DNA of 64,000 nucleotides from an uncultured Chlorobiaceae bacterium (GCA_903824295.1 CAIJWE010000088.1:1-64000), one strand, 5' to 3'; counted from the first letter of the stretch, positions 25,275-64,000 are shown. The notes: generated from the sequence alone by a model not told the origin. Program-made: numbers and translations.

Positions 25275-25278
25275 AGAT

Positions 25279-28890: not shown

Positions 28891-28897
28891 AGTTCAG

Positions 28898-33260: not shown

Positions 33261-33265
33261 GTTGT

Positions 33266-33307
33266 CAGTAATCAGTAATCAGTAATCAGTAATCAGTAAT
33301 CAGTTGT
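33266..33307 (+). repeat. 7-bp tandem repeat CAGTAAT
   Basis: Five exact CAGTAAT units (33266-33300) and a CAGTTGT variant lie between pglZ and the four-helix-bundle gene. The inverse complement occurs at 33678-33702 on the far side of that gene. Confidence 0.9.
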
Positions 33308-33322
33308 CAGTGGGAGGGGGTT

Positions 33323-33682: not shown

Positions 33683-33702
33683 TTACTGACAACTGATTAC
33701 TG
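33678..33702 (-). repeat. inverted copy of the CAGTAAT repeat
   Basis: ACTGATTACTG occurs twice (33678-33688 and 33692-33702), the reverse complement of the array at 33266. It overlaps the end of the four-helix-bundle gene and ends eight bases before brxL. Confidence 0.85.
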
Positions 33703-33709
33703 AAAACAG

Positions 33710-43372: not shown

Positions 43373-43383
43373 CAACAGCGTGT

Positions 43384-44262
43384 ATGGATCATCTTGACAA
43401 ACTTGAGGCACAAAGCGTTTACATTCTTCGCGAAGCCTATCGTGAATTTAAAAGCCTCTGTATGCTCTGGTCGATTGGCAAAGACAGCACCGTCATGCTC
43501 TGGCTTGCGCGGAAGGCCTTTTTCGGCCACGTACCCATTCCCTTGGTGCATATCGACACGCACTACAAGATTCCTGAAATGATTGCCTATCGCGACCGGT
43601 TTGCCCTTGAGTGGAACCTGAATATGATCTATGGTGAAAACAGTGAGGCGCTTGCAGAAAAACAGACCTTTCCTGATGGCAATACCGATCGTCTTACCTG
43701 CTGCAAATACCTTAAAAGTGAAGCGCTGAAACATACGCTCTCTGGTGAGTGGCCTCGCTACAGGATGAATCATGACGAACGGCGCTATGTGGTTGATGAG
43801 GGACGGGAACCCTATACCGGAGTGATTGTCGGCGTCAGGGCTGACGAAGAGGGGAGCCGTTCAAAGGAACGCTATTTTTCACCCCGCGACAAAGACAACG
43901 TCTGGGATGTCGGCGATCAGCCTCCCGAGTTCTGGAACCAGTTCAAAACCGATTTTGCTCCCGGTACCCATGTACGCATCCATCCGCTGCTCGACTGGAC
44001 CGAGCAGAACATCTGGGAATATATCGAGCGCGAAAAGATACCGGTGGTCTCCCTCTATTTCAATCAGGGCGAGGGTACGCGCTATCGTTCTCTTGGCTGT
44101 TATCCCTGTACCAATCCGGTACTCTCGGATGCACAAACGGTGCCAGAGATCATTGATGAGCTGAAGAGCGGCAAGTTTTCAAACATTGCTGAACGCTCAG
44201 GGCGCGCCCAGGACAGTGAAGATGGCGGGCTGGAGACGCTTCGGCGCGACGGGTATATGTAA
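43384..44262 (+). CDS. cysD: sulfate adenylyltransferase subunit CysD
   Basis: A 292-residue PP-loop ATP sulfurylase subunit making APS from sulfate and ATP with CysN. The PP-loop is [13 protein letters not shown] near residue 29. Also visible are [39 protein letters not shown] and the C-terminal GCYPCTNPV and [13 protein letters not shown] chose ATG 43384 because [17 protein letters not shown] matches the family start. The TTG at 43369 would overlap the cysH stop as TTGA and is a weaker option. Confidence 0.95.
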
Positions 44263-44298
44263 TTGACCGTTGACAATTGATAGTGGACAATTGACAAT
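44262..44298 (+). repeat. short TTGACAATTGA-type repeats between cysD and cysN
   Basis: GTTGACAATTGATAGTGG is followed by ACAATTGACAATGG. The two GACAATTGA-like units resemble dispersed short repeats of the CAGTAAT class seen elsewhere in the window but have a different core. Confidence 0.5.
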
Positions 44299-44330
44299 GG
44301 CGGGTGACTCAATCTTTTTTTTGTAGAGCT

Positions 44331-46130: not shown

Positions 46131-46156
46131 CGGCTCAGGGCATAACCGTTTCTTTC

Positions 46157-46179
46157 GCCTCCCGCATAATCGGGGAGGC
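46157..46179. terminator. hairpin between convergent cysN and cysA
   Basis: GCCTCCC pairs with GGGGAGGC around an eight-base loop. There is no T-run; it may still block read-through between the convergent operons. Confidence 0.4.
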
Positions 46180-46196
46180 TACTCTGTTCACTCCCT

Positions 46197-47270
46197 TCAG
46201 ATCTCATAATCGCCGGTAAAGACGCGGACACGGTTCAGGGAGACAAAGACTTTTTCACCTTTGGCAAGCTGAAGGTTCACGTAGAGCTCCCTTGGTATTT
46301 CGGCATCAATCGGATGTTCAAACCCCTCGCACGCAAGGTTCAGGCCAATTTGTCCGCCCATGATGCGCACCTCCTGAATGGTCCCGGCAAGGTCGGTTTC
46401 AGCGCTGCGGATTCTGCTGATACCGATTTCGTGAGGTCGCACAAAGGCCTGGCTGGCTCTCTCTTCGCTATGTTTCAGTTCATCCGGAGCATCGACATGA
46501 TGGGTTCCGAGGCTCACCTTGCCGTTTTTGATGCGCCCGTGGAAGACGTTAACATTGCCAAGAAAGTTGTAGACAAAGGCGTTCACCGGGTGATCGTAGA
46601 CCTCCTGGGGTGTTCCCTGCTGCTCGATTCGCCCCTTGTTGATGACCACAATCCGGTCGGCCAGTTCAAGCGCCTCCTCCTGGTCGTGGGTGACAAAGAT
46701 ACTGGTGACATGGATTTCATCATGCAGCCTTCTGAGCCAGCGGCGCAGCTCCTGGCGCACCTTGGCATCGAGGGCCGAAAAGGGCTCGTCGAGCAGCAGC
46801 ACCTTGGGATTGACGGCCAATGCCCTTGCAAGGGCGACTCGCTGGCGCTGCCCACCCGAAAGCTGTGACGGATAGCGTTTAATGGCCCAATCCATCTGCA
46901 CCAGCTTCAGCAGGTGTTCCACCCGATCCTGAATGGCACTGCGGGAGGGGCGTTCACGCATCGGAAGCACTTTGAGGCCGAAGGCGACATTTTCAAAAAC
47001 CGTCAGACGGCGGAACAGGGCATAGTGTTGAAAAACAAAACCGACATTTTTTTTCCGGGTCGGCAGGTTGGTGGTGTCCTTTTGTTCGAGAATGATTTTT
47101 CCTGAATCGGGCAGTTCCAGACCGGCAATGATCCGCAAGAGGGTGGTTTTACCGCATCCTGAAGGCCCAAGCAGTGCAACAAGCTCCCCCGAAGCGACGT
47201 TAAGAGTGATGTTGTCGAGCGCCGTGTAGCCAGTAAATGTTTTGGTAATATTTTGAAGTTCGATACCCAT
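46197..47270 (-). CDS. cysA: sulfate/thiosulfate ABC transporter ATPase CysA
   Basis: A 357-residue importer ATPase. Walker [10 protein letters not shown] is near residue 34, Q-loop FQHYALF follows, the signature [15 protein letters not shown] comes before Walker [13 protein letters not shown], and H-loop VTHDQEEAL. The C-terminal TOBE domain (residues about 235-350) is present. [13 protein letters not shown] start and sulfate transporter neighbours make CysA clear. Last gene of sbp-cysT-cysW-cysA. It is eight bases from cysW. Confidence 0.95.
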
Positions 47271-47278
47271 GGCGGTTC

Positions 47279-48145
47279 TTAATGGTGAAAGCTGTTTTTC
47301 TGAAATTGTTTTTCAAGAGTCACTTTGACCCCTACGGTGAGGAGGGCCAGAAAGACAAGGATTGAGGCAACGGCAAATGATGCGGCAAAATTGTATTCGC
47401 TGTAGAGAATTTCCACATGCAACGGGATGGTGTTTGTCTGGCCCCGAATATGGCCGGAAACAACCGAGACCGCTCCGAACTCTCCAATGGAGCGGGCGCT
47501 ACAGAGAATCATGCCATAGAGCAGCCCCCAGCGAATATTGGGCAGGGTGATTTTGCCAAAAATCTGCCACCCCCTTGCGCCCAGTGTCAGGGCCGCCTCC
47601 TCCTCATCGCGTCCCTGCGCCTCCATCAGCGGAATCAGCTCCCGCGCAACAAAGGGAAAGGTGACAAAGAGGGTTGCAATAACAATGCCCGGGGTTGAAA
47701 AAATAATTTTAATACCCTGCTCTCCGAGCCAGGAGCCAAAAGGGGTGCGACTGCCGACAAGCAAGACAAAAATGAGACCGGCAATAACCGGGGAGACCGC
47801 AAACGGCAGATCCAGCAAGGTCTTGAGCGTTGCTTTTCCCTTGAAATTGAATTTGGTAATGGCCCATGCAGCCGTGACGCCAAAAAAGGCGTTCAGTGGC
47901 ACAACAATGGCGACAGTTGTCAGCGTCAGTTTTACCGCCTCAATTGCGTAAGGCTCGCGGACTGATTCGAGGTAGTACTCCCATCCTTTCGAGAATGCCT
48001 GGGCAAAGACCAGCCCAAGCGGCAGAAAGATAAAGCCGATAAAAAAGAGGAGTGTCAGGCCGATCAGCACTATTTGCACTGGCAGGGGGTCAGAGATCCT
48101 TTTTTTTACGACAGGAGCGCTTTCCGGTGGTTGTGGTTTCAGCAT
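47279..48145 (-). CDS. cysW: sulfate ABC transporter permease CysW
   Basis: A 288-residue inner-membrane permease with six membrane helices and the EAA loop [21 protein letters not shown] that docks on CysA. Segments [17 protein letters not shown] and [16 protein letters not shown] are characteristic. Co-transcribed with cysT (eight bases upstream) and cysA. Confidence 0.95.
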
Positions 48146-48152
48146 AATATAC

Positions 48153-48986
48153 TTATCGGTATTCTTTTTGTTGCCACTCCTGCACTGCGTTCAGCAGCAG
48201 AAGCATGGAAAAGGAGATAAGGAGAAGCACCAGCGCTACAGCCGAAGCTCCGGCGTAGTCAAACTGGTCGAGTTTTGCCATGATCATCAGCGGAGCAATC
48301 TCGGTTTTCATCGGTAGATTGCCGGCAATGAAAATCACGGAGCCATATTCTCCGATACCACGCGCAAAGGCAAGAGTTGAGCCGGTGAGCAGGGCAGGAA
48401 AGAGATGAGGAAGCAGGATTTTTCGGAAGGTCTGCCAGCGGGTTGCGCCGAGGCACTGCGCCGCCTCCTCAATCTCCTGCTCCACCTCTTCGAGAACAGG
48501 CTGAATGGTGCGCACCACAAAGGGAAAACCGATAAAAATCAGCGCCACCACAATTCCTGTCGGCGTGTTGATAATTTCAATATTCCACTTTGTCAGGGTT
48601 TCACCGAGCCAGCCAACAGGGGAGTAGAGGGTCGCAAAACAGATACCGGCAACAGCGGTCGGTAAAGCAAAGGGGAGATCGACAAGGGCGTCAAGAAACT
48701 GTTTACCGGGAAATTGGTAGCGTACCAGCACCCATGCCGTGAGGAGCCCGACACCCCCATCAAAAAGGGCGGCAAAGAGTGCGGTAGAAAAACTCAGTCG
48801 GTAGGATGCAAGGACACGGGGAGCCGTTACGGCATGGATGAAGGGCTCCCACCCCATGGGAATGGTATTGAAGAAGATCATGCTCAGCGGAACAATCACG
48901 ATGGCCGAGAGGTAGAATACCGTGTAGCCCATCGACAGACCGAACCCTGGCAGAATGTTGCGTCTTTTTCTCTGAAAAAATTCCAT
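48153..48986 (-). CDS. cysT: sulfate ABC transporter permease CysT (CysU)
   Basis: A 277-residue inner-membrane permease, partner of CysW. The EAA loop reads AAQCLGATRWQTFRKILLPHL, and DLPFALPTAVAGICFATLYSPVGW and FARGIGEYGSVIFIAGNLP are CysT signatures. About 110 bp and a hairpin separate it from the upstream sbp gene, so its expression may be lower than that of the binding protein. Confidence 0.95.
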   Translation of the reverse strand: MEFFQRKRRNILPGFGLSMGYTVFYLSAIVIVPLSMIFFNTIPMGWEPFIHAVTAPRVLASYRLSFSTALFAALFDGGVGLLTAWVLVRYQFPGKQFLDALVDLPFALPTAVAGICFATLYSPVGWLGETLTKWNIEIINTPTGIVVALIFIGFPFVVRTIQPVLEEVEQEIEEAAQCLGATRWQTFRKILLPHLFPALLTGSTLAFARGIGEYGSVIFIAGNLPMKTEIAPLMIMAKLDQFDYAGASAVALVLLLISFSMLLLLNAVQEWQQKEYR

Positions 48987-49014
48987 TGAGTTTGTTGTTA
49001 ATGCTTTTTACAGC

Positions 49015-49049
49015 AAAAAACGGGAGTGAACCCTGTCGTTCCCGTTTTT
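49015..49049. terminator. hairpin between sbp and cysT
   Basis: AAAACGGGA pairs with TCCCGTTTTT around about 13 bases. On the minus strand the stem runs into six Ts, so it can act as a partial terminator after sbp and reduce cysTWA expression, a common device for binding-protein operons. Confidence 0.75.
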
Positions 49050-49098
49050 CATTATGGCAAGCTGCTTTGCCCGGTTACACCGTTACGAATCCAACTTT

Positions 49099-50115
49099 TC
49101 AGGGAAGATATATCTGATCGAACACTCCGCCATCATTAAAATGAGTTTTCTGGGCGGTACGCCAGTTTCCAAACACTTCGTTCAGGGTAAAGAGCTTTAT
49201 TTTCGGAAAATTTGCCGCATATTTTTTCAGCGACGCAGCATTGCGGGGGCGATAGGAGTTCCGGGCAATGATATCCTGCGCCTGCGGAGTATAGAGGAAG
49301 TTCAGATAAGCCTCAGCAAGCTTGCGGGTACCGTGTTTTGTGACGTTTTTATCGACGATCGCAACAGGTGGTTCTGCCAGAATGCTTATGGCTGGTGAAA
49401 CAATTTCAAACTTATCCTTTCCGAACTCCTTGAGAATTAGATGCGCTTCATTTTCCCATGCCAGAAGGACGTCACCAAGGCCGCGCTGTGCGAAGGTCAT
49501 TGTTGATCCACGGGCACCGGTGTCAAGCACCGGGACATTTTTGTATAATGCCTTCACAAAATTTTTAGCCTGCACTGCTGATCCGCTCTGTTTCTGTTTA
49601 TAGCCCCATGCAGCCAGGTAGTTCCAGCGGGCGCCGCCTGACGTCTTTGGATTCGGAGTGATGACTGAAACGCCGGGCTTTACAATGTCGTCCCATGTTG
49701 TAATGTGTTTTGGATTACCTTTACGTACCACGAATACGATGGTTGAGGTATAGGGTGTGCTGTTGTTGGGCAACCGTGTTTGCCAGTTGGCAGGCAGGAG
49801 TTTGCTGTCGGAGATGGCGTCGATATCGTAGGCAAGGGCCAGCGTTACAACATCAGCTTCCAGACCATCAATGATCGCCCGGGCCTGCTTTCCCGAGCCA
49901 CCGTGTGACTGGTCGATTCTCAGTGTCTGGCCGGTTTGTTTTTGCCAGTGCTGAATAAAAGCGGCGTTTTCGCTCTGATAGAGTTCCCGTGTCGGGTCAT
50001 ACGAGACATTCAGCAGTGTCGCTGTACCAGCGGCCTCAGCAATGGTTCCCGGCAGTCCGGAGGCAGCAATCAATGATGCCGTAATCGTGATTTTTTTTAT
50101 CCATCCAAGATTCAT
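49099..50115 (-). CDS. sbp: periplasmic sulfate-binding protein Sbp
   Basis: A 338-residue secreted binding protein. A signal peptide with [22 protein letters not shown] precedes the mature start at about residue 29. Family features are [40 protein letters not shown] and WETNEAHLI-like segments such as [17 protein letters not shown], and the sulfate-contacting [14 protein letters not shown]. It heads the sbp-cysT-cysW-cysA operon. A leader with an intrinsic terminator lies 54 bases before its start. Confidence 0.95.
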
Positions 50116-51902: not shown

Positions 51903-52155
51903 ATCTATTGTATACTGGTCATTACGCTCAAGAGCATGTTGACCCAGTTTCAAAAGGAGTTCTGGAGCCGCTTCTCTATACCATTAGTCCGGCTCGACTC
52001 TCTTGGCCTGCAACGGGTTCGCAATACTATCCCCCGCAACCACAATCCGTTCAACTACTACGATCGCACCATCATCTCGATTGATACGCTCAAAAACAAT
52101 CTGGAGTACCGGAACTATCTTGAAAATGCATGGTGGGACATCATCATCATTGATC
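51903..52155 (+). pseudogene. truncated SNF2-family helicase fragment
   Basis: The frame from 51903 reads VITLKSMLTQFQKEFWSRF..LVRLDS..LQRVRN..NPFNYYDRTIISIDTLKNN..YRNYLENAWWDIIIID, the region of SNF2/DEAD-type ATPases from motif Ia up to the first D of the DEAH box (52152-52154). There the similarity stops and the sequence becomes the 3' end of the minus-strand brxL. A stop (51900-51902) lies before it. Both ends of the helicase are missing. Confidence 0.75.
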
Positions 52156-53604
52156 TACCTCGCGTAACGTGTATGCGGCTATGTTCTTCCCTCCGTATTC
52201 GAGCGGGTCTATCTTTTGCAACTGCTGCCGGATCACCGTGCGCATCTGCACGGCAGGACGCAGACAGTATCGCTTGAACTCCCCCTGGTCGATTCCGTCT
52301 GACTCTGTGACGTGTGGAAACAGCAGTTTAAGATAGGCCGTACACAACCGCAAAACCGCTTCTGTGTCGCGGGTGTCCGCTCCGGGAGGATAGTCCACCA
52401 ATTGTTCTACTACATGCCGATAAATTAGTGTTTCTGCAGGCTGGCGCAGCAGATGCATGATTTCGGAAAAATACTCAGTGTTAAGTGCCCAACCGTTTAT
52501 TTTCAGGTTCTCACTCATGCGCGGGATATCGCGACCCCGGATAAAACCGTGGAACCGGTCTAGTAATGCTGACTCGTGGAACACTTCCGGTAGCCTCTGG
52601 AACATATCTCTGGTTTCGTCCATCTCTGTTTGTGGTATGTTCCCCAGAAGGATCACACCGGCTCCGCCAACGATACGGTTCTTGCCGACCGTGATCTCTC
52701 CACTTTCCATGTAGGCTTTCAGTCCACCCTGCATCTCGCTCGGGTCGTGGAAGTTGATTGACTGGATTTCGTCAAGCGCTACAAAGTCGTTTGAGGCGAT
52801 TAGACCGGGGCTCTTTCCATTGATATCACCGAACATCTTTGCCCGCGTCAGCGTTCCACCGCTGACTAGCCAGCCGTATTTCCCTACCTGCCCGAACATA
52901 TACGATTTGCCTGTTCCCTTGGGAGCCAACTCCACCAAATTCAGGCGCGGCTCGATGAAAGGCAGCAGGCGCGTCAACACAGTGTGTTTTTGTACCCAGT
53001 CTTCGTATCCTTCAGGGTTGTAATCTATCGCTCCCAACACAACGTCGATCCACTCTTCGGCAGTAAACTGACTGCGAGCTTCTCTATAGGCATCCAGATC
53101 AATCGTGTACGGACAAAAATTCTTGTATTCTAGGAGCGTAAAACAACCTCGCGGGTTTTCGTTGTCCGGACTCCGATACCCAAGTTGTACTAGTCCCCAG
53201 CCACCAGCAGTTTTTATAACATCAGTTTTAATTCGGTCCCATATATAATCCTCAATCAATGTTTCCGCATGCTTCAAACCCAATTCCGGAATTGCAAATG
53301 TGTATTCATCAGATCTTACGCTGAATTGGATTTCAATTTTAGCTAGGAATTTTTTCGTACAACCCTCACTTCGTGCAGTGTCCTTCAATTCCAGTAAATT
53401 CTCTCGACGCGGAATAATTTCGTAAATGTATTTTCGCAAAGCCTCAGCATCGTGGATTTTTCCGTCCGCTTCCGCCTTACGCTTCAGAATCCAGTCACGC
53501 AAGAACGATGGTATCGATGCCGCCTTGAAAATTGCCACGATATTCGGTGCCTTGAATACCGTTGTGCTTGGAAATGCTTCGCGTAACTTTTGAGTGTTGA
53601 CCAT
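52147..53604 (-). CDS. brxL: short BrxL-like AAA+ ATPase of the type 4-like BREX operon
   Basis: A 485-residue protein matching the central part of BrxL: Walker A LAPKGTGKSYMFG at residues 226-238, Walker B FVALDEIQS at about 275, GVILLGNIPQTEMDE and SALLDRFHGFIRGRDIP. The N-terminal half shares FxYxEARSQFTAEEWIDVVLGAIDYNPEG style residues with the type 1 BrxL. It lacks the C-terminal 200 residues present in the 684-residue type 1 protein. Its stop codon (52147-52149) lies inside the helicase relic, so the last residues may be junction-derived. Last gene of the operon. Confidence 0.85.
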   Translation of the reverse strand: MVNTQKLREAFPSTTVFKAPNIVAIFKAASIPSFLRDWILKRKAEADGKIHDAEALRKYIYEIIPRRENLLELKDTARSEGCTKKFLAKIEIQFSVRSDEYTFAIPELGLKHAETLIEDYIWDRIKTDVIKTAGGWGLVQLGYRSPDNENPRGCFTLLEYKNFCPYTIDLDAYREARSQFTAEEWIDVVLGAIDYNPEGYEDWVQKHTVLTRLLPFIEPRLNLVELAPKGTGKSYMFGQVGKYGWLVSGGTLTRAKMFGDINGKSPGLIASNDFVALDEIQSINFHDPSEMQGGLKAYMESGEITVGKNRIVGGAGVILLGNIPQTEMDETRDMFQRLPEVFHESALLDRFHGFIRGRDIPRMSENLKINGWALNTEYFSEIMHLLRQPAETLIYRHVVEQLVDYPPGADTRDTEAVLRLCTAYLKLLFPHVTESDGIDQGEFKRYCLRPAVQMRTVIRQQLQKIDPLEYGGKNIAAYTLREVDQ

Positions 53605-53625
53605 GATTGACTCACCTTGTTAAAA

Positions 53626-55746
53626 CTACAAATCAAAATCGTCTTTCTCTACAATCTGTGCCCGCTTGCCACCTGCCTTAGCCATTGGTACAAATTGCCC
53701 GGTTCGCGAAAAAATTACTACCGGTACTAATCGCTCCTCCAGCGTTGCTCCTCCGTGTAACTCAAAGCCCTGTCCGCCACCTCCCTTGGGCAACCGGTCA
53801 TATCCCCGCATCACCCAATGCCTTCCGTCCAATGTTTCTTCAAGTTCCGGCGGACATACTCCTTGCGTCGGTCGCTCGCGGTAGCGCCAATCGGCAACAT
53901 CTCCTCCATCTTCGCAAACAAGCGTCTGAGCAAGCCTTGGCTCAGACTGCCATGCCAGCGCTGCAAGCCGCGAACTTCCATGGTCTGCTGTCACAAGCAC
54001 GCGTTCAAACTGTGACAGCCCATCCCACACACGAGGAAAAACCTCGCTGCCGATCACATCCAACGCGGCAGCCAGATTCTCCTCTGCCTGCCTCACTTCG
54101 TGCATCTCTACTCCGTTGTGAGCAATGTTGTCGAAGCGCTTGATATCTGGCAATCGCCGAGTGGTATCTGGCCAATGGATTTTGTTGAATTTAGTTGACG
54201 TAGGCAAATGCCCCTCACCGACTTCCAATGAATCTACGCACAGATTCTGCTCCCGAGCCAGCGCGATTAACATTGGTAGCCACTCAGCACCCATAGCATC
54301 AACTACAAGCAACGCACATTTATTGTCAGATGCATATCGTTGCACTATTGCATCTCGCGATTGTATTGAGTTCGGAGTCGTCACATTTTTAGCTTTTGTA
54401 TAAAAATCCGGTGTTACGAAGCCAGCCATTTTCAATTCACGGTATTCTGTGAAATATTCGTCCAGAGCTATGTCGTCGAAAACGAAATCCGCATTTAAAT
54501 ACATTGACGCCTCTGGATACACTTTTTTTATGGCATTAGATACAATCCCGTCTACTGAGCAGCGCCGCAATAATTCCGCCAGCTCCATGTCCGTACCGCA
54601 ATTAAGCCATGGCGCGACTCGCGACGTTGATTCTCCCGTGCAACGTGCAATGAACTGCCGAATGTCCACGCCGGACATTTTTACCCTTGCGTACCGTATA
54701 GCATCCCTGCGTTCGCTAGCATAAAATATAGATTCATCTAGCCATTCCACCGCGCCCGTTACGTATGCGGAGCGGAAGTTGCCGACAAGCACCCCTTCTT
54801 GTCTTGCGATACACTCAAGATAACTTCCTTTGGATGCAACGTGTTTTACAAGCCACAGTACCGCTTCGCGTTCCGCTTCCTTGCGTCCATCAAAAACATG
54901 CAATACTTGTTTTTCTACTGCACCTTCAGGAAATAACAGAGTTTTCAGCGTTTTGAGCATTTCCGTCAGTGTCTTCGCCGCACCATCTTTACCCTGCGCA
55001 CACATCCACCGCAAGGCATCGTCGGATAATTCTGCATCTTCCACACCGTAAAATACGCGAGCAAAATCCCGCAGACACACCACCTGAACCACCTCAGCGC
55101 TTAGCCCCGCCAATTCCCGTCCTTCTGAGGCTACAACAATCCGCCGGAAAGAACTATCGTTTGGGTGCTCCTCTGTATATCGCAAATACTTCTGGAATGT
55201 GTCACACGCTTCTGGAATTAAGGATGCCAAATCGTCTCCGACCAGCATCACTTCTGTACGCCCTACCTCGAACGGATGAAGCACGTCCTTTTCGGTATCA
55301 ATTTCAATCAGTTGCTTTCCCTGGCGGTAGCGAGGATTGGTGAAAATATCCTTGAGTATCAATCCTGTGCCATCATCGCTTTGCAAAAAGCAAACAGCTT
55401 CTCTTCCAGATGTTTCGTCCATCCATTCGCGTAAAGCTATAATTGTAGCTCGTTTATTCTCCTCCGTTAATAACGAAAGATAGCCGGGCATTCCCAGCAA
55501 TACAAACGCGTTACCGTTTGTCGCCTGAGCAGTCATGGCATTGCGAACGCGCTCGAAAACTTCGTCGGGCATGGGGAGCCACGCGCATTCCGTCACCAGT
55601 TCGCTCAAGCGTAACTCAATGTCACCGCGTTCTTGACAGAACCGGCGCAACATCGTCCAGTTTTCTCTCGTTGGTATAGTTACAGCTCGTATCTTCTCCT
55701 CCGCGAGCGGATTCCTGATGTATTCGCAATACTCGATGAGTTTCAT
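53626..55746 (-). CDS. pglZ: PglZ-like phosphatase of the type 4-like BREX operon
   Basis: A 706-residue PglZ-domain protein. The metal-binding ALLVVDAMGAEWLPML is at about residue 480 and the second metal site VLVTADHGSSRLAALAW at about 600. The C-terminal ELHGGATLEERLVPVVIF corresponds to VHGGASLQEVVVPLI in the type 1 PglZ. I chose ATG 55746, four bases after the brxC stop and preceded by GGAG; the frame upstream overlaps brxC by 41 bases. The N-terminal region differs from that of the type 1 protein. Core subunit of all BREX types. Confidence 0.88.
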   Translation of the reverse strand: MKLIEYCEYIRNPLAEEKIRAVTIPTRENWTMLRRFCQERGDIELRLSELVTECAWLPMPDEVFERVRNAMTAQATNGNAFVLLGMPGYLSLLTEENKRATIIALREWMDETSGREAVCFLQSDDGTGLILKDIFTNPRYRQGKQLIEIDTEKDVLHPFEVGRTEVMLVGDDLASLIPEACDTFQKYLRYTEEHPNDSSFRRIVVASEGRELAGLSAEVVQVVCLRDFARVFYGVEDAELSDDALRWMCAQGKDGAAKTLTEMLKTLKTLLFPEGAVEKQVLHVFDGRKEAEREAVLWLVKHVASKGSYLECIARQEGVLVGNFRSAYVTGAVEWLDESIFYASERRDAIRYARVKMSGVDIRQFIARCTGESTSRVAPWLNCGTDMELAELLRRCSVDGIVSNAIKKVYPEASMYLNADFVFDDIALDEYFTEYRELKMAGFVTPDFYTKAKNVTTPNSIQSRDAIVQRYASDNKCALLVVDAMGAEWLPMLIALAREQNLCVDSLEVGEGHLPTSTKFNKIHWPDTTRRLPDIKRFDNIAHNGVEMHEVRQAEENLAAALDVIGSEVFPRVWDGLSQFERVLVTADHGSSRLAALAWQSEPRLAQTLVCEDGGDVADWRYRERPTQGVCPPELEETLDGRHWVMRGYDRLPKGGGGQGFELHGGATLEERLVPVVIFSRTGQFVPMAKAGGKRAQIVEKDDFDL

Positions 55747-55750
55747 AGTT

Positions 55751-58700
55751 TTACTCCATAACTGAGAGTCCGACGTCTGGAATTTGATCAATCATCTTCA
55801 GGAGCAGTATCTTTGCCTCGGCATCAAGAAGCATATTCACCTTTTCTGCAGCCTGCTTCCGTACATGATTGTCATATCCCTGCTTGACGAAAGCTTCGAC
55901 CGCTTCGCGAAGCCCTCCGTCCGTCAGCCATCGGTCTGGTGCATCACCCAATTTTATACACAACCAACTGCTCAGTTCTCCTACACTGAACCCTATCTTT
56001 TTATAACGCATGGGCAATACCAGTTTGAGAAATTTTTCTCCCGCCGTTGCCACGTCTACGAATATACCCTCGTTTTTCAGTTTGTCATGTACTGACTGTA
56101 AACGTTCTGCCGATACACCTTCCGGTTTCGCGACTGCATCGATGATACCCTTGGCATCGTCCACTGCCAAAATGCATGTTGAGGGCAGTGTGTGTTTGCG
56201 ACTCCATTCGTCAGGCGACTCCGTTCCTGTGTGTTCACTCCACTGCGCCGCAACCTGCTTGGAAACCAACGCTCGATTATATTCCTCAATCTTGACGCGC
56301 CCCAGTGTTTTAAAACTCTGTTCATCAGCTTTCGCTGAATCCGGAGGAAAAGCATTGTAAAGCTCGCGACCTTCAGCGATTGCCATAGGCCAGATTTCTC
56401 CGAAAATTTCTCGTATTGCACCCAGTTGTAGCGCTTGAGCTATGTCGAAGAACACCTTTCGGATAACTCCTATTTGTTGTTCAAGAATCTCTTCAAAAGC
56501 TTTTACGTCATCGCCGGTCAACGGCTGTCTGCTGAGCAAATCAAAGAAACGCTGCAATGCCGGATGTTTCTTCGCCCAGAACACTGTCGGAACCTTGTTC
56601 TCGCCCAGCACCGCATTGCTCAAGCGGTGCAACGCGTCACCGAAGCTCATGTATCCCGATGAGCCAGCCATCACGCGAATATGCTCTGCACACAGCGTCT
56701 GCCGGTAAATCTCTTCCAGTATGGACTCTGCATCACCGCGTTTCCACAGCCAGCCGCTCGTTGCTGCAAACCGGTTTTTGACAGCCCTGCAATAGAATTG
56801 CGCGGAACCGCCCATGCGCTCAGACACCGCCTTCAAATCCGGCTTGGCTCTATCAACATACCGCTGGAATGCCTCCTCAAACACCACCGGCGTCATATAC
56901 TTGGCCATCGCCTCCGCCAGTCCCTGCGTCGCCAGAAGAATCTCGCCGATCTCCTTCAACTTATTGCCGCGAGTTTCGGTGTCTCCTTTGGAGCTGATAC
57001 TGTTCGCCGCGCACAGCGCGTCAATGACTTTGCCCATCGCCTCCGAGTTTGGGTCGGCTTGCGAACGAATATGTTCCGGCAGCACCCATAGGGGAACTCC
57101 TTGTGAAATATCTTCCAGTCGAGTCGCAACCGCGTTCAACGCCGCTTCCACCGTTCCATCCACAAGCTGACTAATCCCGAAAATCTTGCTACTTTGTTTT
57201 ATGAAAGCCTGTTCCTCTTTCGATAGGCGACAGATCAGTTTCTCGTTTTTGATGGTGTTGGTACCATCGTCTTTCACGGTAGCCTCAATGATTTCCGCCA
57301 ACGTAGCTTCGTCCAGCGCTTTGCTTATCACGCTATCCGTCCATTGCAGTTTACGTTGTCCGGTCAACCATGTTTTTAAAACGAAGCCCAGAACAAAGGC
57401 CGAATGCGCCACCCCCAGCAGTCCGTAAGGTGGGCGCTGAAGGTCGATGTAGAGTTTGCGTATGGAGCAGGGATTGCCCGCGCCCACCGTGTTGTCTTGC
57501 CATGCCTTACACTTTTCCTGCAAATGCGTTAGCGGATGGTTATGATTCGCATCGAACCATGTTTCTTCGCCGGTGATGCCATTTTTCTGCCATGTCGCCA
57601 CCACGGTCTTCCATGCTCCAGATTTTGAGAACTTGTCAAACTCCATGCCCGCCTGCGCCCAGCTCTGCAAGTGGGTCAGTTGGCCAAACGCACTGATGTT
57701 GCCACCGCCAAGATCGTCCGTATATGCCGTGAACATTTGTTTTGCATAGCCGGTAAGCCAGTCCTTTTTTAATTGCCCCCACGTTACTTCCTCAGCGAAC
57801 GGCTCCCCATTTACATTGGGTTTGTACACTATGAGTTTGGCAGCACTCATCACATTGGAATGCCATTCAGCCTTGGCATTATTCATCTGCGTCTCGAACA
57901 CCTTCTTGCCCACGCTGTCGCCCAATGTGTGGCGGGCCTGGTAATCCGTGAACTTTTCCCATGCTTTCGCGTTGTTGCGGCAGAAACTGACATCCGGCAG
58001 TGTCACAAACAGCATACGGTGGTCTTTGAACTGTTTAGCCAACTCTTTTGCCTTATCGGGAACGCGCAATTGCTCCTGCTCGTCTCTCGCCAGAATGAAC
58101 TGCACAAGCACTCTATTTCCACTGTTACCAAAAGACTCACGTTTTTGGATGCTTGAAGGCGAAAGACCATTCACGCCAGCCGCCCGCACATCAAAACGCC
58201 CTCCGTAGTTGACTCCTTTCAACTGTTTAACCAGTTCAGTCTCGGTTTCTTTCAGCACGAGGTCACCAAACTTGCCATCCAACGCTGCTTTTTTCTCTTC
58301 AATCTCTTTTGTGTCCGAACGGTCACGGAAACGTTCGCAACGCCCGTTCACAATCGAGAAACAATGCTTCTGCTCCAGATTGCGTAGGACTGCATCGATG
58401 CCCAGCAAAGCCCCGTCTCCCTCGAAACTGCGTTGGATATTTTCCACTGCCACGCTCAATAGTGGATGCCCCGTTCCCTGCAACTGTTCGATCAAGCCAA
58501 ACAGCAGCACAGCCTTGAATACGCGCTGCTCGTCCGGCTGCAAATCCTGTTCGCGTCGAGCATATTCGCCTCGTGCTACCTGTACTTCTTGCCTTGCCCC
58601 CAGATCGTCCCGTTCTACAAAATACCGCCACAGATGATCTACCGTCAGAAACTGATGACCGGGAACATCCAATCCGCCTTTTTCAATGAAGGTTTTGAAT

Positions 58701-59902
58701 TCCTCACCGTTCAAGAACCCGAACATGCTCCGTTGGTTTGATCTGATCGCCACTGACAGATGTTTCAGCAGAAACGCCGCCATCGGGTGCAGAGGCAGGA
58801 TACCCTTGAAATCCGCAGCATCAATACCTGCTTTGTTGACAATCATGTAGTTTTCAGCCACGCCGTTCACACTGTGCCATAATGCATCGCGCTCTTGCTT
58901 CCACTCCGTTGCCCTCTCTGGATTTTCAACGAAGGCGTCTGCAGCAAGTTTCAACGCGGTCTCGTTGGGTAGGTCAAGTCGCTTGAACGTAAACCGGTCG
59001 TTCGCCTTCTTCGCGCTCTCGGCCCCTGCCGCTAAATACGACGTAATATCCGTGTGAGTAACCGGAACGAAATAGAACCGTCCCTGCTGTGCGGCTTCCG
59101 CCAACTGTTCCAGCGTCTTCAATTCAGATCGGTTGTGATCAATGAATGACGAGAATTCGTCCCAAATATAGACCAGCTTGGAAAGTCCGTTCGCATTCAG
59201 CGATGCATCCACCCAAGTCAGGAACTCTTCCGCGCTCATACCCAGATAGATGTGACGTGCTTCAAGCACCCGCATCACGTCGCTAACCAGCCCTGCCTCC
59301 AGATTCGTATCCCGGAGTTTCTTTTCCAGTGAATCTGCTGTGTTGATACCCGCGTTCAGGTGCGAGAGCCGCGTCTGCATTTCTTCACGCTTTGCGAAGA
59401 AATGTGGTTCGTCCTGCCGAATGCGCTCAATGACTTCATCCAGCTTGCCTTTCAGCGGAATCGTGTGTCCGCCAGCCTCCAGTGTCTTTGATATGCCACG
59501 CTGCAAGCGCATTAAAAACTGGTTCTTCGCATCAACGCCGTCGGCGTTCACATCATAGACGATGAGGATTTTTTCACCGCTCTGTTCCAGCAAACGCTTT
59601 TTCACAGGATCAGGGATCTGTGCCTTGCGCAAATCCAGCCATTTCAGTATGCGCGCCTTGTCGTCAGTGAACAGTTTTTGCAGAACCAGCGACGCGTGGC
59701 TCTTGCCCGTGCCATACGCTCCAGTAATCCAGAGCGTTTTGTTTCCTCCCTCTAAACATTTGAGAAGTTCCCGCAAAATCTCCACGAACGAATCGTGCGG
59801 ATAGAACCCAAGCCATGTCCCTGGCGTTTTGTTAATGTCCGCCAAAGTCATGCACGGCGCATAATCCGGTCTGATCCCGAAATAGTCCTTGTAGAAAGTC
59901 AT
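55751..59902 (-). CDS. brxC: BrxC-like giant ATPase of the type 4-like BREX operon
   Basis: A 1383-residue P-loop ATPase. Walker A ITGAYGTGKSHASL is at residues 59-72, closely resembling GFFGSGKSH of the type 1 BrxC; the acidic strand KLVYIWDEFSSFIDHN is at about residue 245, followed by the sensor FYFVPVTHTDI. The rest is helical and shows no known catalytic domain. It is about 200 residues longer than the type 1 BrxC and the two are only distantly alike. Expected to be the ATP-driven core of the complex. Between brxP (40-base gap) and pglZ (four-base gap). Confidence 0.88.
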   Translation of the reverse strand: MTFYKDYFGIRPDYAPCMTLADINKTPGTWLGFYPHDSFVEILRELLKCLEGGNKTLWITGAYGTGKSHASLVLQKLFTDDKARILKWLDLRKAQIPDPVKKRLLEQSGEKILIVYDVNADGVDAKNQFLMRLQRGISKTLEAGGHTIPLKGKLDEVIERIRQDEPHFFAKREEMQTRLSHLNAGINTADSLEKKLRDTNLEAGLVSDVMRVLEARHIYLGMSAEEFLTWVDASLNANGLSKLVYIWDEFSSFIDHNRSELKTLEQLAEAAQQGRFYFVPVTHTDITSYLAAGAESAKKANDRFTFKRLDLPNETALKLAADAFVENPERATEWKQERDALWHSVNGVAENYMIVNKAGIDAADFKGILPLHPMAAFLLKHLSVAIRSNQRSMFGFLNGEEFKTFIEKGGLDVPGHQFLTVDHLWRYFVERDDLGARQEVQVARGEYARREQDLQPDEQRVFKAVLLFGLIEQLQGTGHPLLSVAVENIQRSFEGDGALLGIDAVLRNLEQKHCFSIVNGRCERFRDRSDTKEIEEKKAALDGKFGDLVLKETETELVKQLKGVNYGGRFDVRAAGVNGLSPSSIQKRESFGNSGNRVLVQFILARDEQEQLRVPDKAKELAKQFKDHRMLFVTLPDVSFCRNNAKAWEKFTDYQARHTLGDSVGKKVFETQMNNAKAEWHSNVMSAAKLIVYKPNVNGEPFAEEVTWGQLKKDWLTGYAKQMFTAYTDDLGGGNISAFGQLTHLQSWAQAGMEFDKFSKSGAWKTVVATWQKNGITGEETWFDANHNHPLTHLQEKCKAWQDNTVGAGNPCSIRKLYIDLQRPPYGLLGVAHSAFVLGFVLKTWLTGQRKLQWTDSVISKALDEATLAEIIEATVKDDGTNTIKNEKLICRLSKEEQAFIKQSSKIFGISQLVDGTVEAALNAVATRLEDISQGVPLWVLPEHIRSQADPNSEAMGKVIDALCAANSISSKGDTETRGNKLKEIGEILLATQGLAEAMAKYMTPVVFEEAFQRYVDRAKPDLKAVSERMGGSAQFYCRAVKNRFAATSGWLWKRGDAESILEEIYRQTLCAEHIRVMAGSSGYMSFGDALHRLSNAVLGENKVPTVFWAKKHPALQRFFDLLSRQPLTGDDVKAFEEILEQQIGVIRKVFFDIAQALQLGAIREIFGEIWPMAIAEGRELYNAFPPDSAKADEQSFKTLGRVKIEEYNRALVSKQVAAQWSEHTGTESPDEWSRKHTLPSTCILAVDDAKGIIDAVAKPEGVSAERLQSVHDKLKNEGIFVDVATAGEKFLKLVLPMRYKKIGFSVGELSSWLCIKLGDAPDRWLTDGGLREAVEAFVKQGYDNHVRKQAAEKVNMLLDAEAKILLLKMIDQIPDVGLSVME

Positions 59903-59942
59903 TTTTTAAACCCACCTTTAGAATCTGCAGTCTATTTGCGTT

Positions 59943-62303
59943 TTAACGCTTTTCCAAAATCAGAGCCACCACATCGTCCAGCCTTTTCGTTTCCGGGAAC
60001 ACCCGCACTTCATCCAGCCCCAGCGTGAAGCTGCACGTGATCAGGTCTGGGTGTAATGCTGATAGCCCCATACATTGTTTTTTGAATTCGTCCGGAGAGA
60101 TACCAAATACAATCAGGGGCGACAAAACTTCTCCATCGAACTTTGTGGCCATCATCTGTCGTACCGTGAATACCCCACAACAAGACTTCTCCGCCATCAC
60201 ATAAAGCCCATAAAGAACTATCAGCGGATCTACTGAACGCGAACGTCTGGTGAGCTTTTCAACGGACCTACCCTTCATTTCGGTTTCAATCAACGCCATG
60301 TCTCCTTCGCTAAGCGGAGACGCCTTAACAAGTTGGCAAAGCGATTGCAACGCACCGTTCCTCACCGATGCCGAACCAACGGATTGAGATAGCTTTTCAT
60401 CGAGTAGTTTCGTCGGATATCCTGCGTCAAGATCCGTATTGCAAACATACCATTTCACAAGCGGTGAAGTGTTTGCCAGACGGAACCATAGCAACTGCCA
60501 AAGCAGCAAATCACTGAAACCGAGTTTCTTACCAACTTCTAAAAGCAATGTTGTGGTTATAGCAGTTGAATCTCCAATTAATCCCGCTTCACGGAACCAT
60601 GTCACGGCAGATGGAACCATTCTGTTCCCTAACATAGCGGTCTTACGGAAATTTGCGTCCTCGTTCGCCAGAACTTGAATCCATTCTGGTTTCAGACCAA
60701 ATTTCATGTATTTGTTGATACCACTGATGTTCATAGTTTTTGCTCCTGCATATCGTTTTGAGTAATACCGCCAACAACCCTCGCCAGGGGCATAACACCT
60801 CATGCAATGGATGCACGCAGCTTCATCAATAAAGATTTTTACCTTGCCGTTACAGCTATCTTTCTCCAAGTGCAATGCGCCTGTAGGGCATTCCGCCTCG
60901 CAAACGTTGCATCCTATGCAGGCAATAGTCTTATGAACAGCGTATACCAGCCACTTGGAAATGGACTTATCAGCTTTTCCGCTTATCCAGACACATTGCA
61001 GCAAACATCTATCACCGTCTTTGCGAAATGACAAATCAGCGCCTTCAATGTTTCCAATAGCCTTGAGCCATTCCTTTAAATCTTCTTCTGCTTCAACAGG
61101 GTATTCACAAATCACACGATCACTTTTGCGGTCTACACCAGGAGCAATAATGATTTCTTTCAGGGATACGCCACTTTTTCGCGCATACCAGCCTCCTTCA
61201 TAAACGAACGCATCTGCGTCTTCCTCAGAAGTAAACTCGCGGTCAATCGAATGACGCACCATAGCAGCAAAAGGCGCGACCTCTTCGGTGTAATTCATTC
61301 GGATCAGATCATTCTGCCGGTGTGTTGACATCGGACACAACAGGCATCCGACACGAGGTAACCCTTTTCGGTACGCTTCGTTCAAAATCAGATTATGCTC
61401 AAAAATATAAAGCCACAACTCATGGGCTGACCACGCCAAAATTGGCATGGCATTCACCTGCGACTTGCTTTTCAAACCATCTCCAATATCTTCGTATTCA
61501 GAACGTCGTTGACTCTCTTCGCCACGAACGCCGACAAATACCAGTGTTTTGATTGAGCTTTTGCCGAGCCGTCCCTTTAGAGCTAAAATCGCAGGAGTGC
61601 TCTTGAAGACGGAACAGCACCAACGCAACGCTTGTGATGGTGGACCGAAGAGTTGCCAGTTTTCTAATGCGGAGGTTTTGGCGGTAACCTTCAAAAACGG
61701 TCGGCCTTCGTAACGACTTTGAATTTCTTCCCATACGCTGTAGGTATCCGGCAGTTCCATATCTGTATCACTGAAAATAACCGGTATGTCCAAAGGTAGA
61801 ACCTTGTGGCAAAGGTCGAGCAAAACCACAGAGTCTTTGCCGCCGCTGAAACCGATATAGACAGCCTCGCATTTTTCTGCGTAGGCATCGTACATCTCCT
61901 TTATGCGCTTAAGTGTATCTGCCACCAGTGCGGCCATAATGGCACGGTTTTCGCGCACCAATAACCCAACATCAACTGGAGAAAGCTTCAATTTTCTTCG
62001 TGACTTCGCTTCTTCGTGTGAATATTCGTGTTCGCACAGTACACCTTTCCATTCGATGTTGAGCGGCTCACCGTATTGTTTCTTCTGGAGTCTTGCGATT
62101 TCTTCGCCTCGATACAGATACATGTTCTGTTTTGCCCAGAGGAGCGGGCGCCGCTCTGCTGAATCGAATGCCAACCTTGTATCTAACCCTGTGAGCGTCA
62201 GTTCCTCTGCGAAGACCGGGCGGATTTCGCTTGCCACAAACCTTCCAGTCTGCGTTGTCAGGCGGTACCCGCGAGTATGCGGGTCCCACTCGTAGTTATA
62301 CAT
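59943..62303 (-). CDS. brxP: BrxP: PAPS-reductase-like PP-loop protein with 4Fe-4S and DUF4007
   Basis: A 786-residue multidomain protein that marks type 4 BREX. Residues 1-110 form an N-terminal module. The ATP-pyrophosphatase core has SGGKDS at 153-158, IFSDTDMELPD at 176-186, a CC pair at 229-230 and C320/C323 (GCLLC), the same CC..CxxC layout as the [4Fe-4S] APS reductase in this window. Residues 462-510 are two ferredoxin-type clusters (CIGCNVCEAECPTGAL and CIHCMRC..C). The rest, from NISGINKYMKFGL (525) on, matches DUF4007, which accompanies DndC. The enzyme may put sulfur on DNA or sense it; the substrate is unknown. It overlaps the upstream gene by eight bases. Confidence 0.88.
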   Translation of the reverse strand: MYNYEWDPHTRGYRLTTQTGRFVASEIRPVFAEELTLTGLDTRLAFDSAERRPLLWAKQNMYLYRGEEIARLQKKQYGEPLNIEWKGVLCEHEYSHEEAKSRRKLKLSPVDVGLLVRENRAIMAALVADTLKRIKEMYDAYAEKCEAVYIGFSGGKDSVVLLDLCHKVLPLDIPVIFSDTDMELPDTYSVWEEIQSRYEGRPFLKVTAKTSALENWQLFGPPSQALRWCCSVFKSTPAILALKGRLGKSSIKTLVFVGVRGEESQRRSEYEDIGDGLKSKSQVNAMPILAWSAHELWLYIFEHNLILNEAYRKGLPRVGCLLCPMSTHRQNDLIRMNYTEEVAPFAAMVRHSIDREFTSEEDADAFVYEGGWYARKSGVSLKEIIIAPGVDRKSDRVICEYPVEAEEDLKEWLKAIGNIEGADLSFRKDGDRCLLQCVWISGKADKSISKWLVYAVHKTIACIGCNVCEAECPTGALHLEKDSCNGKVKIFIDEAACIHCMRCYAPGEGCWRYYSKRYAGAKTMNISGINKYMKFGLKPEWIQVLANEDANFRKTAMLGNRMVPSAVTWFREAGLIGDSTAITTTLLLEVGKKLGFSDLLLWQLLWFRLANTSPLVKWYVCNTDLDAGYPTKLLDEKLSQSVGSASVRNGALQSLCQLVKASPLSEGDMALIETEMKGRSVEKLTRRSRSVDPLIVLYGLYVMAEKSCCGVFTVRQMMATKFDGEVLSPLIVFGISPDEFKKQCMGLSALHPDLITCSFTLGLDEVRVFPETKRLDDVVALILEKR

Positions 62304-63699
62304 TCGAGCAGACCTCCGGCGCGATGCCGTTCCGTAAGCAAACTTTGAAATATAAGCGGTAGTTTGAAATCATGTTTTTCATTGTAGAAATAGCATATCT
62401 CGGTACAGAAGCAATCTGTTCCAGCCGTTCTCCTTGTTCAATGAGTCGTACCCATTCTGCGACATGAGGATTTGTACCATCTCTTCTAAACGCACGCCAA
62501 GTAGCTGCCGTGATAGTCCGCCCATCTAATCCGATAATTCCGCCTTCCGCCTCTTGTATTTTTGTTTCTTGATATTCGTACTTGTTGTCCTCTTGTTTGA
62601 GTCGCAAACGTCGATCCCATAATATTTCGCCCTCATAGCTAAAATGGCGAAAACCATTTCCTGAAGACACGCCTAACAAGTGATTTGCCAATGCCGAAAT
62701 CGCCCAAGCATTTCCGTCATATTCCACTTGATTGAGGTCATCCTGCACAATACAAGAAATATGACGATCCTTTATGAAAACTAGTTCAGCGCCAACCGGC
62801 ACGCCAAGGTTCCTGAAGCGAGTATTCGAACTTCGCACACGTCTGCCCAGCACAGATAAGGTTTTTGCGTTTACATGGGTTATCTTATTATTTGAAAAGA
62901 CATTGTTATAGCCTTGGTAGTGTTGCGCGCAAATGCGTATGAAAGTGTCGTCATTCAGTAGTGCGTACTCCTCGCGTAAATGAATTTGGTAGAACAAATT
63001 CAAAGCGAACCCAAGTTTTGAAACAGTTACATTCTCATCCAGCGCAACCATTGTATCTATAATGACTGTTAGTTTATCTGAGAAATCTTCCGGTAGCATA
63101 ATCGACCCTGTGCTGCGCCAACAGCGTACTCCACCGACTTCCGCCTCATGGACTTCCGGTAAGAAGAGCAACTGAATCACCCTCAATGCATCAGCGGTTA
63201 GGTGCGGCATAGCCTGCTCAATTTCATTAAAAAGCAACGTACCATCCGACTTTTCAAGCCATTCCGCAATCGTTTCAGAGATTGCCTCCAGATTATGATC
63301 TATATTGGACGGGGTCAGGGAACAGAGATAGCCTCCCTTGCTCCACACCTCGACTTTAAAACCCAAATGCTTTAGAAATATTGCGCAATCTCCCGTTGTG
63401 GCAATATGGTGGAAAACCCCGTAAAAACCTTTAAAAAGCCGTTCGACTGAAAAGCAACCGTATTCATTTAGCCACTCCTTTGCCTGCTTTTCGAACTCCA
63501 ACTGGGTCTCTTCGTCTGAAATCATTTCGTCGGAAAACCATAGTCCATTTTCCAATTGGAACATCGCTGCTTGCAGGTCTTCGATTTGCCAATCTTCAAA
63601 CGGGACTTTCTGCCGCAACAGCCGCACTGCCATCGGATCAAATGATACGCCATTTGGGCATTCTCGCTCTAATGCTGTCATAAATTCAGCACTCGTCAT
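62296..63699 (-). CDS. uncharacterised first gene of the type 4-like BREX operon, RAMA/DUF4357-like domain
   Basis: A 467-residue protein I do not recognise as a whole. In the numbering of the 471-codon frame, residues about 303-348 (LGVPVGAELVFIKDRHISC, then VEYDGNAWAISALANHLLG) have the pattern of RAMA/DUF4357 domains, proposed readers of modified DNA in restriction systems. Residues 430-455 look like a helix-turn-helix (RLEQIASVPRYAISTMKNMI). The N-terminal 300 residues are mixed alpha/beta without a motif known to me. I chose ATG 63699, preceded by GGAGAG, over ATG 63711. It overlaps brxP by eight bases and probably leads the message. Modification reading is inferred. Confidence 0.75.
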   Translation of the reverse strand: MTSAEFMTALERECPNGVSFDPMAVRLLRQKVPFEDWQIEDLQAAMFQLENGLWFSDEMISDEETQLEFEKQAKEWLNEYGCFSVERLFKGFYGVFHHIATTGDCAIFLKHLGFKVEVWSKGGYLCSLTPSNIDHNLEAISETIAEWLEKSDGTLLFNEIEQAMPHLTADALRVIQLLFLPEVHEAEVGGVRCWRSTGSIMLPEDFSDKLTVIIDTMVALDENVTVSKLGFALNLFYQIHLREEYALLNDDTFIRICAQHYQGYNNVFSNNKITHVNAKTLSVLGRRVRSSNTRFRNLGVPVGAELVFIKDRHISCIVQDDLNQVEYDGNAWAISALANHLLGVSSGNGFRHFSYEGEILWDRRLRLKQEDNKYEYQETKIQEAEGGIIGLDGRTITAATWRAFRRDGTNPHVAEWVRLIEQGERLEQIASVPRYAISTMKNMISNYRLYFKVCLRNGIAPEVCSNV

Positions 63700-64000
63700 G
63701 CAACTCTCCATTCACAGGTCAGCCAGCAGTACACTATACCATGCAAGTCGATAAAGCTATCCTTTCGATTCCGAAACATAGAAAATAACTCAAAAAGTCC
63801 CCGTGCATGGTGATTTTGGGATGATGACACAAAACCGGATAGAAATATAGTAGAGCCAGGCTCCGGTTAAGGTATGATTTGATTATGCAAACTTCAAGAG
63901 CGCTTATCTCTCAATGGGCATCAATATATGGATCTGCTGTTTAGACCCCGGCTTTTTAAGCTGAAAATGTAGTCTATTTTGTTGATATAGCATGAAGAAT
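63700..64000. other. upstream region of the type 4-like BREX operon
   Basis: About 300 bp to the window edge. The minus-strand promoter of the operon should lie here. AT-rich with no gene, terminator or tRNA recognised. Confidence 0.5.

What the first reader, a model, noticed from the sequence alone, without database searches (positions are those of the whole stretch)
52147..63699. Type 4-like BREX operon led by a gene with a RAMA/DUF4357-like domain
Seen: five minus-strand genes with tiny gaps or overlaps, in the order unknown-467-aa, BrxP, BrxC, PglZ, BrxL, and no DNA methyltransferase. Known: type 4 BREX was defined by the PAPS-reductase-type BrxP replacing PglX, and is little studied. Inference: the first gene, with a domain resembling proposed modified-base readers plus an HTH, could read the mark that BrxP makes or senses and so supply self/non-self discrimination or control of the operon. 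I do not recall this gene being described as a core member.
Basis: partly seen in the sequence, partly recalled or inferred. Interest (0 to 1): 0.85.

Follow-up and report, generated by a model that had tools for sequence, protein, structure and literature searches.

The report
Unrecognised leader gene of type-4 BREX
A green sulfur bacterium carries a sulfur-based antiviral operon (type-4 BREX) that starts with an undescribed DNA-binding gene, and relatives of that gene sit at the head of nearly every such operon examined, so the system probably has a core part that current descriptions leave out.

Summary
A complete type-4 BREX operon (leader-brxP-brxC-pglZ-brxL, minus strand, overlaps of at most 8 nt and gaps of at most 40 nt) lies at 52147-63699. 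The leader matches nothing in Pfam or NCBIfam. Residues 286-376 adopt a RAMA fold: the top four PDB matches are the two known RAMA structures, CcrM and MPND. DUF4357 is not supported. RAMA is not the conserved part, however: among the leaders examined it occurs only in the three Chlorobium-group loci. What recurs is an N-terminal array of tandem winged helices (residues 1-275). Homologous winged-helix leaders, usually 650-1400 aa with varying extra modules (RNA-polymerase alpha-CTD, sigma-70 region 4, a new 'KPV' domain), sit at the head of brxP in 24 of 29 type-4 loci from Chlorobiota, Lentisphaerae, Planctomycetes, Chloroflexota and Firmicutes. Three more are weak matches; two loci lack it. 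Related Ssp loci lack it (0 of 5). The accessible literature on type-4 BREX does not describe this gene. My best reading is a DNA-binding sensor/scaffold subunit, comparable to the C-terminal half of PglW; an operon regulator is the main rival. Reading of the phosphorothioate mark is untested.

The parts
62296..63699 (-). leader gene (467 aa from ATG 63699; 471 aa from ATG 63711); first gene of the type-4 BREX operon
   Evidence: ORF; no Pfam/NCBIfam family; homologous leaders at other brxP loci
62887..63699 (-). tandem winged-helix core of the leader (residues about 5-275 of 471), the conserved part
   Evidence: AF2 mean pLDDT about 80 over this part; Foldseek top matches are tandem-WH arrays such as UFL1/DDRGK1, ESCRT-II, SelB; profile match to clostridial leaders over 273 columns
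62584..62856 (-). RAMA-fold domain (residues 286-376)
   Evidence: PDC-S57 C-terminal domain family; 2 of 15 family members hit Pfam RAMA, best 5e-6; AF2 pLDDT 86; top Foldseek hits CcrM 6PBD (prob 1.00, TMq 0.67) and MPND 7YDW
62296..62571 (-). C-terminal extension (residues 381-471) with an HTH-like stretch; not conserved
   Evidence: both congeneric relatives have a TAG at codon 381 followed by stops and frameshifts; substitutions 19/14/19 by codon position against 31/28/72 in the rest of the gene
59943..62303 (-). brxP (PAPS-reductase domain + 4Fe-4S ferredoxin-type region + C-terminal DUF4007-like part)
   Evidence: PADLOC BrxP 3e-286 over 1-784; Pfam PAPS_reduct 2.8e-30; Fer4; cysteines invariant across 9 BrxP
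55751..59902 (-). brxC
   Evidence: PADLOC BrxC E=0 over full length; weaker SspC matches
53626..55746 (-). pglZ, type-4 form (start taken at the internal ATG)
   Evidence: PADLOC PglZ E=0; NCBIfam BREX_PglZ_4 149 bits, cut-off 140
52147..53604 (-). brxL, short form
   Evidence: Pfam BrxL_ATPase 6e-109 and BrxL_N; TIGR02688

Best explanation
The first gene is the local version of a conserved, undescribed leader component of type-4 (phosphorothioate) BREX. Shown: its conserved core is a tandem winged-helix array; homologous arrays are encoded at the head of brxP in nearly all type-4 loci examined; the modules fused to the array change between lineages (RAMA fold here, alpha-CTD plus sigma-70 region 4 or a 'KPV' domain elsewhere). 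Inferred: the protein is a DNA-binding sensor/scaffold subunit made together with BrxP. Its winged helices place the BrxP/BrxC/PglZ machinery on DNA, and the swappable modules test the state of that DNA or of a phage-modified host target. It would play the part that the C-terminal half of PglW (alpha-CTD followed by three winged helices) is proposed to play in type-2 BREX. In this Chlorobium-group copy the tester is a RAMA-fold domain, which by analogy with CcrM and MPND contacts the DNA backbone, where a phosphorothioate would lie, or senses adenine methylation.
For: Operon position and coupling: the leader overlaps or nearly touches brxP (overlap or gap of 26 nt or less in about half of the loci). 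Homology: phmmer P0001 against the Lentisphaerae leader 7e-22; the clostridial-only core HMM hits that same leader at 7e-11; hhalign of the Chlorobium-type core against the clostridial core Prob 96, E 5e-9 over 273 columns; the C1-only HMM hits non-seed C2 leaders at 1e-20 to 1e-32. Census: 24 strong + 3 weak of 29. In a Clostridia sample of 343 genomes, leader core in 20 genomes and type-4 BREX in 8, overlap 6, in all six at the head of brxP; P=6e-6 without the centre genome. Specificity: 0 of 5 Ssp-type loci carry it. Fold. PglW parallel: PglW-profile matches to the alpha-CTD part of leaders and the published PglW anatomy (PMC12839542).
Against: No biochemical evidence. Two type-4 loci lack a leader (L014 Methanosphaera, L082), so it is not strictly required, or it can be replaced or encoded elsewhere. 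The C1-type sub-family also occurs without BREX: standalone, beside PDC-M33, beside Dnd-Pbe. First position in an operon plus winged helices equally fits a regulator. BrxP already carries a BrxA-like DNA-binding part (DUF4007) according to PMC12839542.
Confidence: 0.5

Rival explanations
1. The leader is a transcriptional regulator of the operon, like BrxR in type-1 BREX, binding the promoter through its winged helices and timing expression; the RAMA, alpha-CTD and sigma-4 modules modulate RNA polymerase or sense infection.
For: First gene of the operon; winged helices; alpha-CTD and sigma-70 region-4 domains belong to transcription; a 5' region of about 100 nt is well conserved in the three Chlorobium-group loci; regulators at the head of BREX operons are known (BrxR, cited in PMC12839542).
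Against: Very large and multi-domain (up to 1387 aa); no WYL domain; present ahead of brxP in about five phyla with very different modules; stop/start overlap with brxP suggests production in step with a subunit. No operator was identified.
Confidence: 0.3
2. The leader is a decoy or guard: its alpha-CTD, sigma-70 region 4 and RAMA modules imitate host targets that phages attack or modify, and tampering with them triggers BrxC/PglZ.
For: The appended modules imitate RNA-polymerase parts in several clostridial-type leaders; they are exchanged between lineages while the winged-helix core stays; MzaA of the MZA defence system has a similar sigma region-4 piece. That phage T4 proteins target these very parts of RNA polymerase is recalled knowledge, not tested here.
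Against: The window copy has no RNA-polymerase mimic; no direct evidence of triggering.
Confidence: 0.08
3. The gene is a defence-island passenger with no role in BREX.
For: Two type-4 loci lack it; one sub-family also lives outside BREX.
Against: Same place and strand, usually with tight spacing, in 24-27 of 29 loci across phyla; P=6e-6 for co-occurrence in Clostridia; absent from sister Ssp loci; third-position bias in the first 380 codons shows purifying selection.
Confidence: 0.05

Closest known systems
Type-4 BREX (brxPCZL, DNA phosphorothioation)
   Same: Operon has BrxP, BrxC, PglZ and BrxL in the canonical order, no methyltransferase
   Different: Published component lists (PMC12839542, PMC11931770) have no leader; here and in most other loci the operon starts with one. 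This copy has no adjacent cysteine desulfurase or zinc-finger gene
PglW of type-2 BREX (C-terminal half)
   Same: RNA-polymerase alpha-CTD-like domain followed by several winged helices; PglW profiles match the alpha-CTD part of some leaders
   Different: No NERD nuclease, no kinase domains, no iSTAND found in the leader; the window copy has RAMA and no alpha-CTD
RAMA domain proteins (CcrM, MPND)
   Same: Predicted fold of residues 286-376; top PDB matches
   Different: Sequence too far for a direct Pfam RAMA match; fused to winged helices, not to a methyltransferase or MPN domain
PADLOC PDC-S57 (T5orf172/GIY-YIG + C-terminal RAMA-like domain)
   Same: Same C-terminal domain, 36-37% identical to phage-encoded copies
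   Different: The leader lacks the GIY-YIG nuclease part
MzaA (MZA system sigma-like protein)
   Same: Sigma-70 region-4 piece matches in clostridial-type leaders
   Different: Match limited to that HTH; I saw no MZA genes at these loci

Membership tests
Type-4 BREX | BrxP (PAPS-reductase type) in place of PglX | tested here: met
   PADLOC BrxP 3e-286 full length
Type-4 BREX | BrxC, type-4 PglZ and BrxL in the same operon | tested here: met
Type-4 BREX | DUF4007 (BrxA-like) part, often fused to BrxP | tested here: inconclusive
   Full-length PADLOC BrxP profile covered, but Pfam DUF4007 only E=0.23 at 662-773
Type-4 BREX | cysteine desulfurase (present in 56% of type-4 taxa in PMC12839542) | tested here: not met
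   No hit among window ORFs; present in the Lentisphaerae locus L036. Not a required feature
Type-4 BREX | DNA phosphorothioation and phage restriction | not testable with these tools
   needs LC-MS/PT-seq and phage assays
RAMA domain | RAMA fold | tested here: met
   AF2 pLDDT 86, Foldseek top 4 = CcrM 6PBD x2, MPND 7YDW x2; E 5e-3 to 0.26, prob 0.85-1.00
RAMA domain | match to Pfam PF18755 | tested here: inconclusive
   Window domain itself: no; 2 of 15 relatives yes, best 5e-6
RAMA domain | binds modified DNA | not testable with these tools
   needs binding assays with 6mA, phosphorothioate and plain DNA
DUF4357 | profile similarity to PF14267 | tested here: not met
   hhalign Prob 6%, E 0.006 for one comparison; no Pfam hit
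PglW | NERD nuclease and kinase domains | tested here: not met
   No such Pfam hits in the leaders scanned
BrxR (WYL regulator) | WYL domain | tested here: not met
   No Pfam hit
Leader family defined here | tandem winged-helix core at the head of brxP | tested here: met

The most novel reading that the evidence does not exclude
Type-4 BREX has a near-universal sensing subunit built on one winged-helix scaffold with exchangeable bait or reader modules (RAMA, RNA-polymerase alpha-CTD, sigma-70 region 4, KPV). Type-4 BREX would then recognise invaders through attack on imitated host targets or through the DNA backbone state, not only through an unmarked sequence site.
Probability: 0.12. Interest if true: 0.85.

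Novelty: new variant of a known kind. Interest (0 to 1): 0.64.

Why it matters
How phosphorothioate-based BREX tells self from non-self, and which proteins carry the specificity, is open. A leader gene in about nine of ten type-4 loci, missing from the published component lists I could read, means that experiments with only brxPCZL may lack a subunit. Its exchangeable modules point to what may be sensed. The RAMA-bearing form makes the question directly testable: does a RAMA-fold domain read a backbone phosphorothioate or 6mA?

Tried and rejected
DUF4357 assignment: rejected by profile comparison. C-terminal HTH as a conserved part: rejected. RAMA as the conserved essence of the leader: rejected. 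RAMA there to read the neighbouring type-1 PglX mark: weakened, because both relatives keep RAMA but no PglX was found in either, one of them an 80%-complete genome. No relatives of the leader in IMG/VR by direct search or in plasmids by tblastn. PDB sequence searches of the core and of the RAMA-like domain gave nothing. AF2 of the whole protein left residues 274-471 mostly at low confidence; the RAMA domain was modelled separately with phage-encoded relatives. A phylum-wide search (395 genomes) found brxP of this type only in the three Chlorobium-group genomes, so a Bacteroides-type type-4 BREX was not sampled. Yuan et al. on type-4 BREX was not held; whether it mentions a leader is unknown, and the supplements of PMC12839542 could not be read.

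Full report
Observation. The minus strand of 52147-63711 holds five tightly packed genes. Four are, by PADLOC and NCBIfam profiles, BrxP, BrxC, type-4 PglZ and BrxL. The first has no Pfam or NCBIfam family. PglZ most likely starts at the ATG at 55746. The only profile matching the first gene is PADLOC candidate PDC-S57, over residues 240-374 (1e-20). The organism belongs to a Chlorobium-like genus: the two congeneric genomes with the same operon are titled uncultured Chlorobiaceae.

RAMA-like domain. PDC-S57 proteins are T5orf172/GIY-YIG nucleases with a C-terminal domain. Residues 286-376 of the leader align with that domain, and phage-encoded copies are up to 37% identical. Two of 15 domain sequences hit Pfam RAMA, best 5e-6; the window copy does not hit it directly. 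An AF2 model of the domain with 15 sequences has pLDDT 86 and pTM 0.73. Its four best PDB matches are CcrM 6PBD (prob 1.00, TM 0.67 on the query) and MPND 7YDW, the only two RAMA structures that came up. Comparison with DUF4357 sequences gave Prob 6%, so DUF4357 is not supported. In the RAMA-DNA structures the domain touches the backbone without base contacts, and 6mA did not change MPND binding (PMC9963953). Whether such a domain senses phosphorothioate is open.

The conserved part is elsewhere. AF2 of the whole leader gives confident tandem winged helices for residues 1-273, and Foldseek returns winged-helix arrays (UFL1/DDRGK1, ESCRT-II, SelB). The 91-residue C-terminal extension with the HTH-like stretch is open only in the window. 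Both relatives have a TAG at codon 381 and downstream stops and frameshifts, and substitutions there lack the third-position excess seen in the first 380 codons.

Census. A genome-wide search with a BrxP alignment gave 19 loci. Except where the contig ends (L038), each has a co-directional ORF of 380-1387 aa at the head of brxP; in L045 and L050 a 231-243 aa gene stands between. The Lentisphaerae leader (978 aa) matches the window leader at 7e-22 and the Planctomycetes leader at 2e-9. Most clostridial and Flexilinea leaders fall into two clusters. C1 mostly has alpha-CTD and/or sigma-70 region-4 domains (Pfam) before the core. C2 has, in most members, an N-terminal helical module or a 'KPV' domain before it. 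A C1-only HMM finds C2 leaders at 1e-20 to 1e-32, and a C2-only HMM finds C1 leaders at 1e-23 to 1e-36 and the Planctomycetes leader at 2e-14. The window-type core aligns with the joint clostridial core over 273 columns, Prob 96, E 5e-9, and the clostridial core HMM hits the Lentisphaerae leader at 7e-11. Hits of the C1, C2 and core HMMs to their own seed loci are circular and are not counted as evidence; the cross-cluster hits and the next sample are not circular.

Independent sample. In 343 Clostridia genomes BrxP at 1e-170 or better occurs in 8. Six of these have the leader core at the head of brxP (G402 with one 243-aa gene between, G542, G544, G609, G611, G709). One (L083) has a 262-aa gene with the KPV domain only (4e-16), and one (L082) has none. 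The leader core occurs in 20 of the 343. Without the centre genome the overlap is 5 of 7 against 19 of 342, P=6e-6. Ssp-type loci (SspD/SspC, no PglZ or BrxL) have no leader. Overall: 24 strong (window, L034-L037, L039-L045, L048-L052, L076, L078-L081, L083, L084), 3 weak (L046, L047, L208) and 2 without (L014, L082).

Specificity. In 14 of the 20 Clostridia genomes the core protein is present without BrxP. In those where I read the neighbourhood the C1 profile is the better match or close to it, and the gene is standalone, beside PDC-M33ABC, or beside Dnd-Pbe. KPV-bearing leaders were seen only at type-4 BREX loci, in a collection biased to such loci. So the core family is wider than BREX, but its placement ahead of brxP is far from chance.

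How it most likely works. Shown: operon membership, winged-helix core, RAMA fold, recurrence, module exchange. Inferred: it binds DNA and brings a sensor to the BrxP/BrxC/PglZ machinery. The nearest published parallel is PglW of type-2 BREX, whose C-terminal half is an alpha-CTD-like domain and three winged helices and is proposed to be a sensory hub (PMC12839542); PglW profiles match the alpha-CTD part of some leaders. The main rival is a BrxR-like operon regulator; a decoy/guard role is possible for the RNA-polymerase-like modules.

Known or new. Type-4 BREX as a phosphorothioate system (brxPCZL) is established in the literature cited by PMC11931770. The 2026 survey (PMC12839542) lists BrxC, PAPS reductase, DUF4007, PglZ, BrxL, a cysteine desulfurase and a zinc-finger protein for 457 taxa, with no leader in its main text. 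I could not read its supplements or Yuan et al., so priority is not certain. I class the finding as a new variant of a known kind: a known system with an undescribed, near-universal component.

Noticed in passing
window 16380-35764 (+): A complete type-1 BREX (BrxA, BrxB, BrxC, PglX, PglZ, BrxL) lies in the same window, with two OLD-ATPase-type pairs (PADLOC HEC-02A/B at 23689-25274 and HEC-01A/B at 28871-30729) inserted between its genes; so two BREX types sit in one island. PglX was not found in the two relatives.
   Followed up: partly
window 42653-50115: Sulfate-assimilation genes (CysH-like, CysD-like and CysN-like ORFs, then an ORF set resembling a sulfate/ABC transporter) lie next to the sulfur-using type-4 BREX; not seen next to the operon in the relative L034, so probably coincidence.
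   Followed up: no
L120, L112, L114, L121, L122: C1-type leader-core proteins stand beside a Dnd-Pbe phosphorothioate system (L120) and beside the PADLOC candidate PDC-M33ABC (scanned in L122; same gene types in L112, L114, L121), as if one sensor family serves several defence systems.
   Followed up: partly
L075 (G407:C31:4001-19589): A second type-4-like locus with leader, BrxC, PglZ, BrxL and cysteine desulfurase but no brxP; the same genome has another type-4 operon (L050).
   Followed up: no
L208 (IMGVR_UViG_2585427596_000001): A type-4 BREX operon with a 673-aa leader-position ORF on a contig classed as viral (prophage-like genes upstream).
   Followed up: partly
L136, L138 and other IMG/VR loci L128-L139: Phage contigs encode T5orf172/GIY-YIG proteins with the same RAMA-fold domain as the leader, up to 37% identical to it.
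   Followed up: partly
L045:9277-10008 and L050:4331-5026: A 231-243 aa gene with a helical N-terminal module and CxxC-type motifs (HNH-like) sits between leader and brxP in two clostridial loci; no Pfam hit.
   Followed up: no
window 23200-23508: Low-complexity repeat ORF (SVSK units) inside the type-1 BREX island.
   Followed up: no
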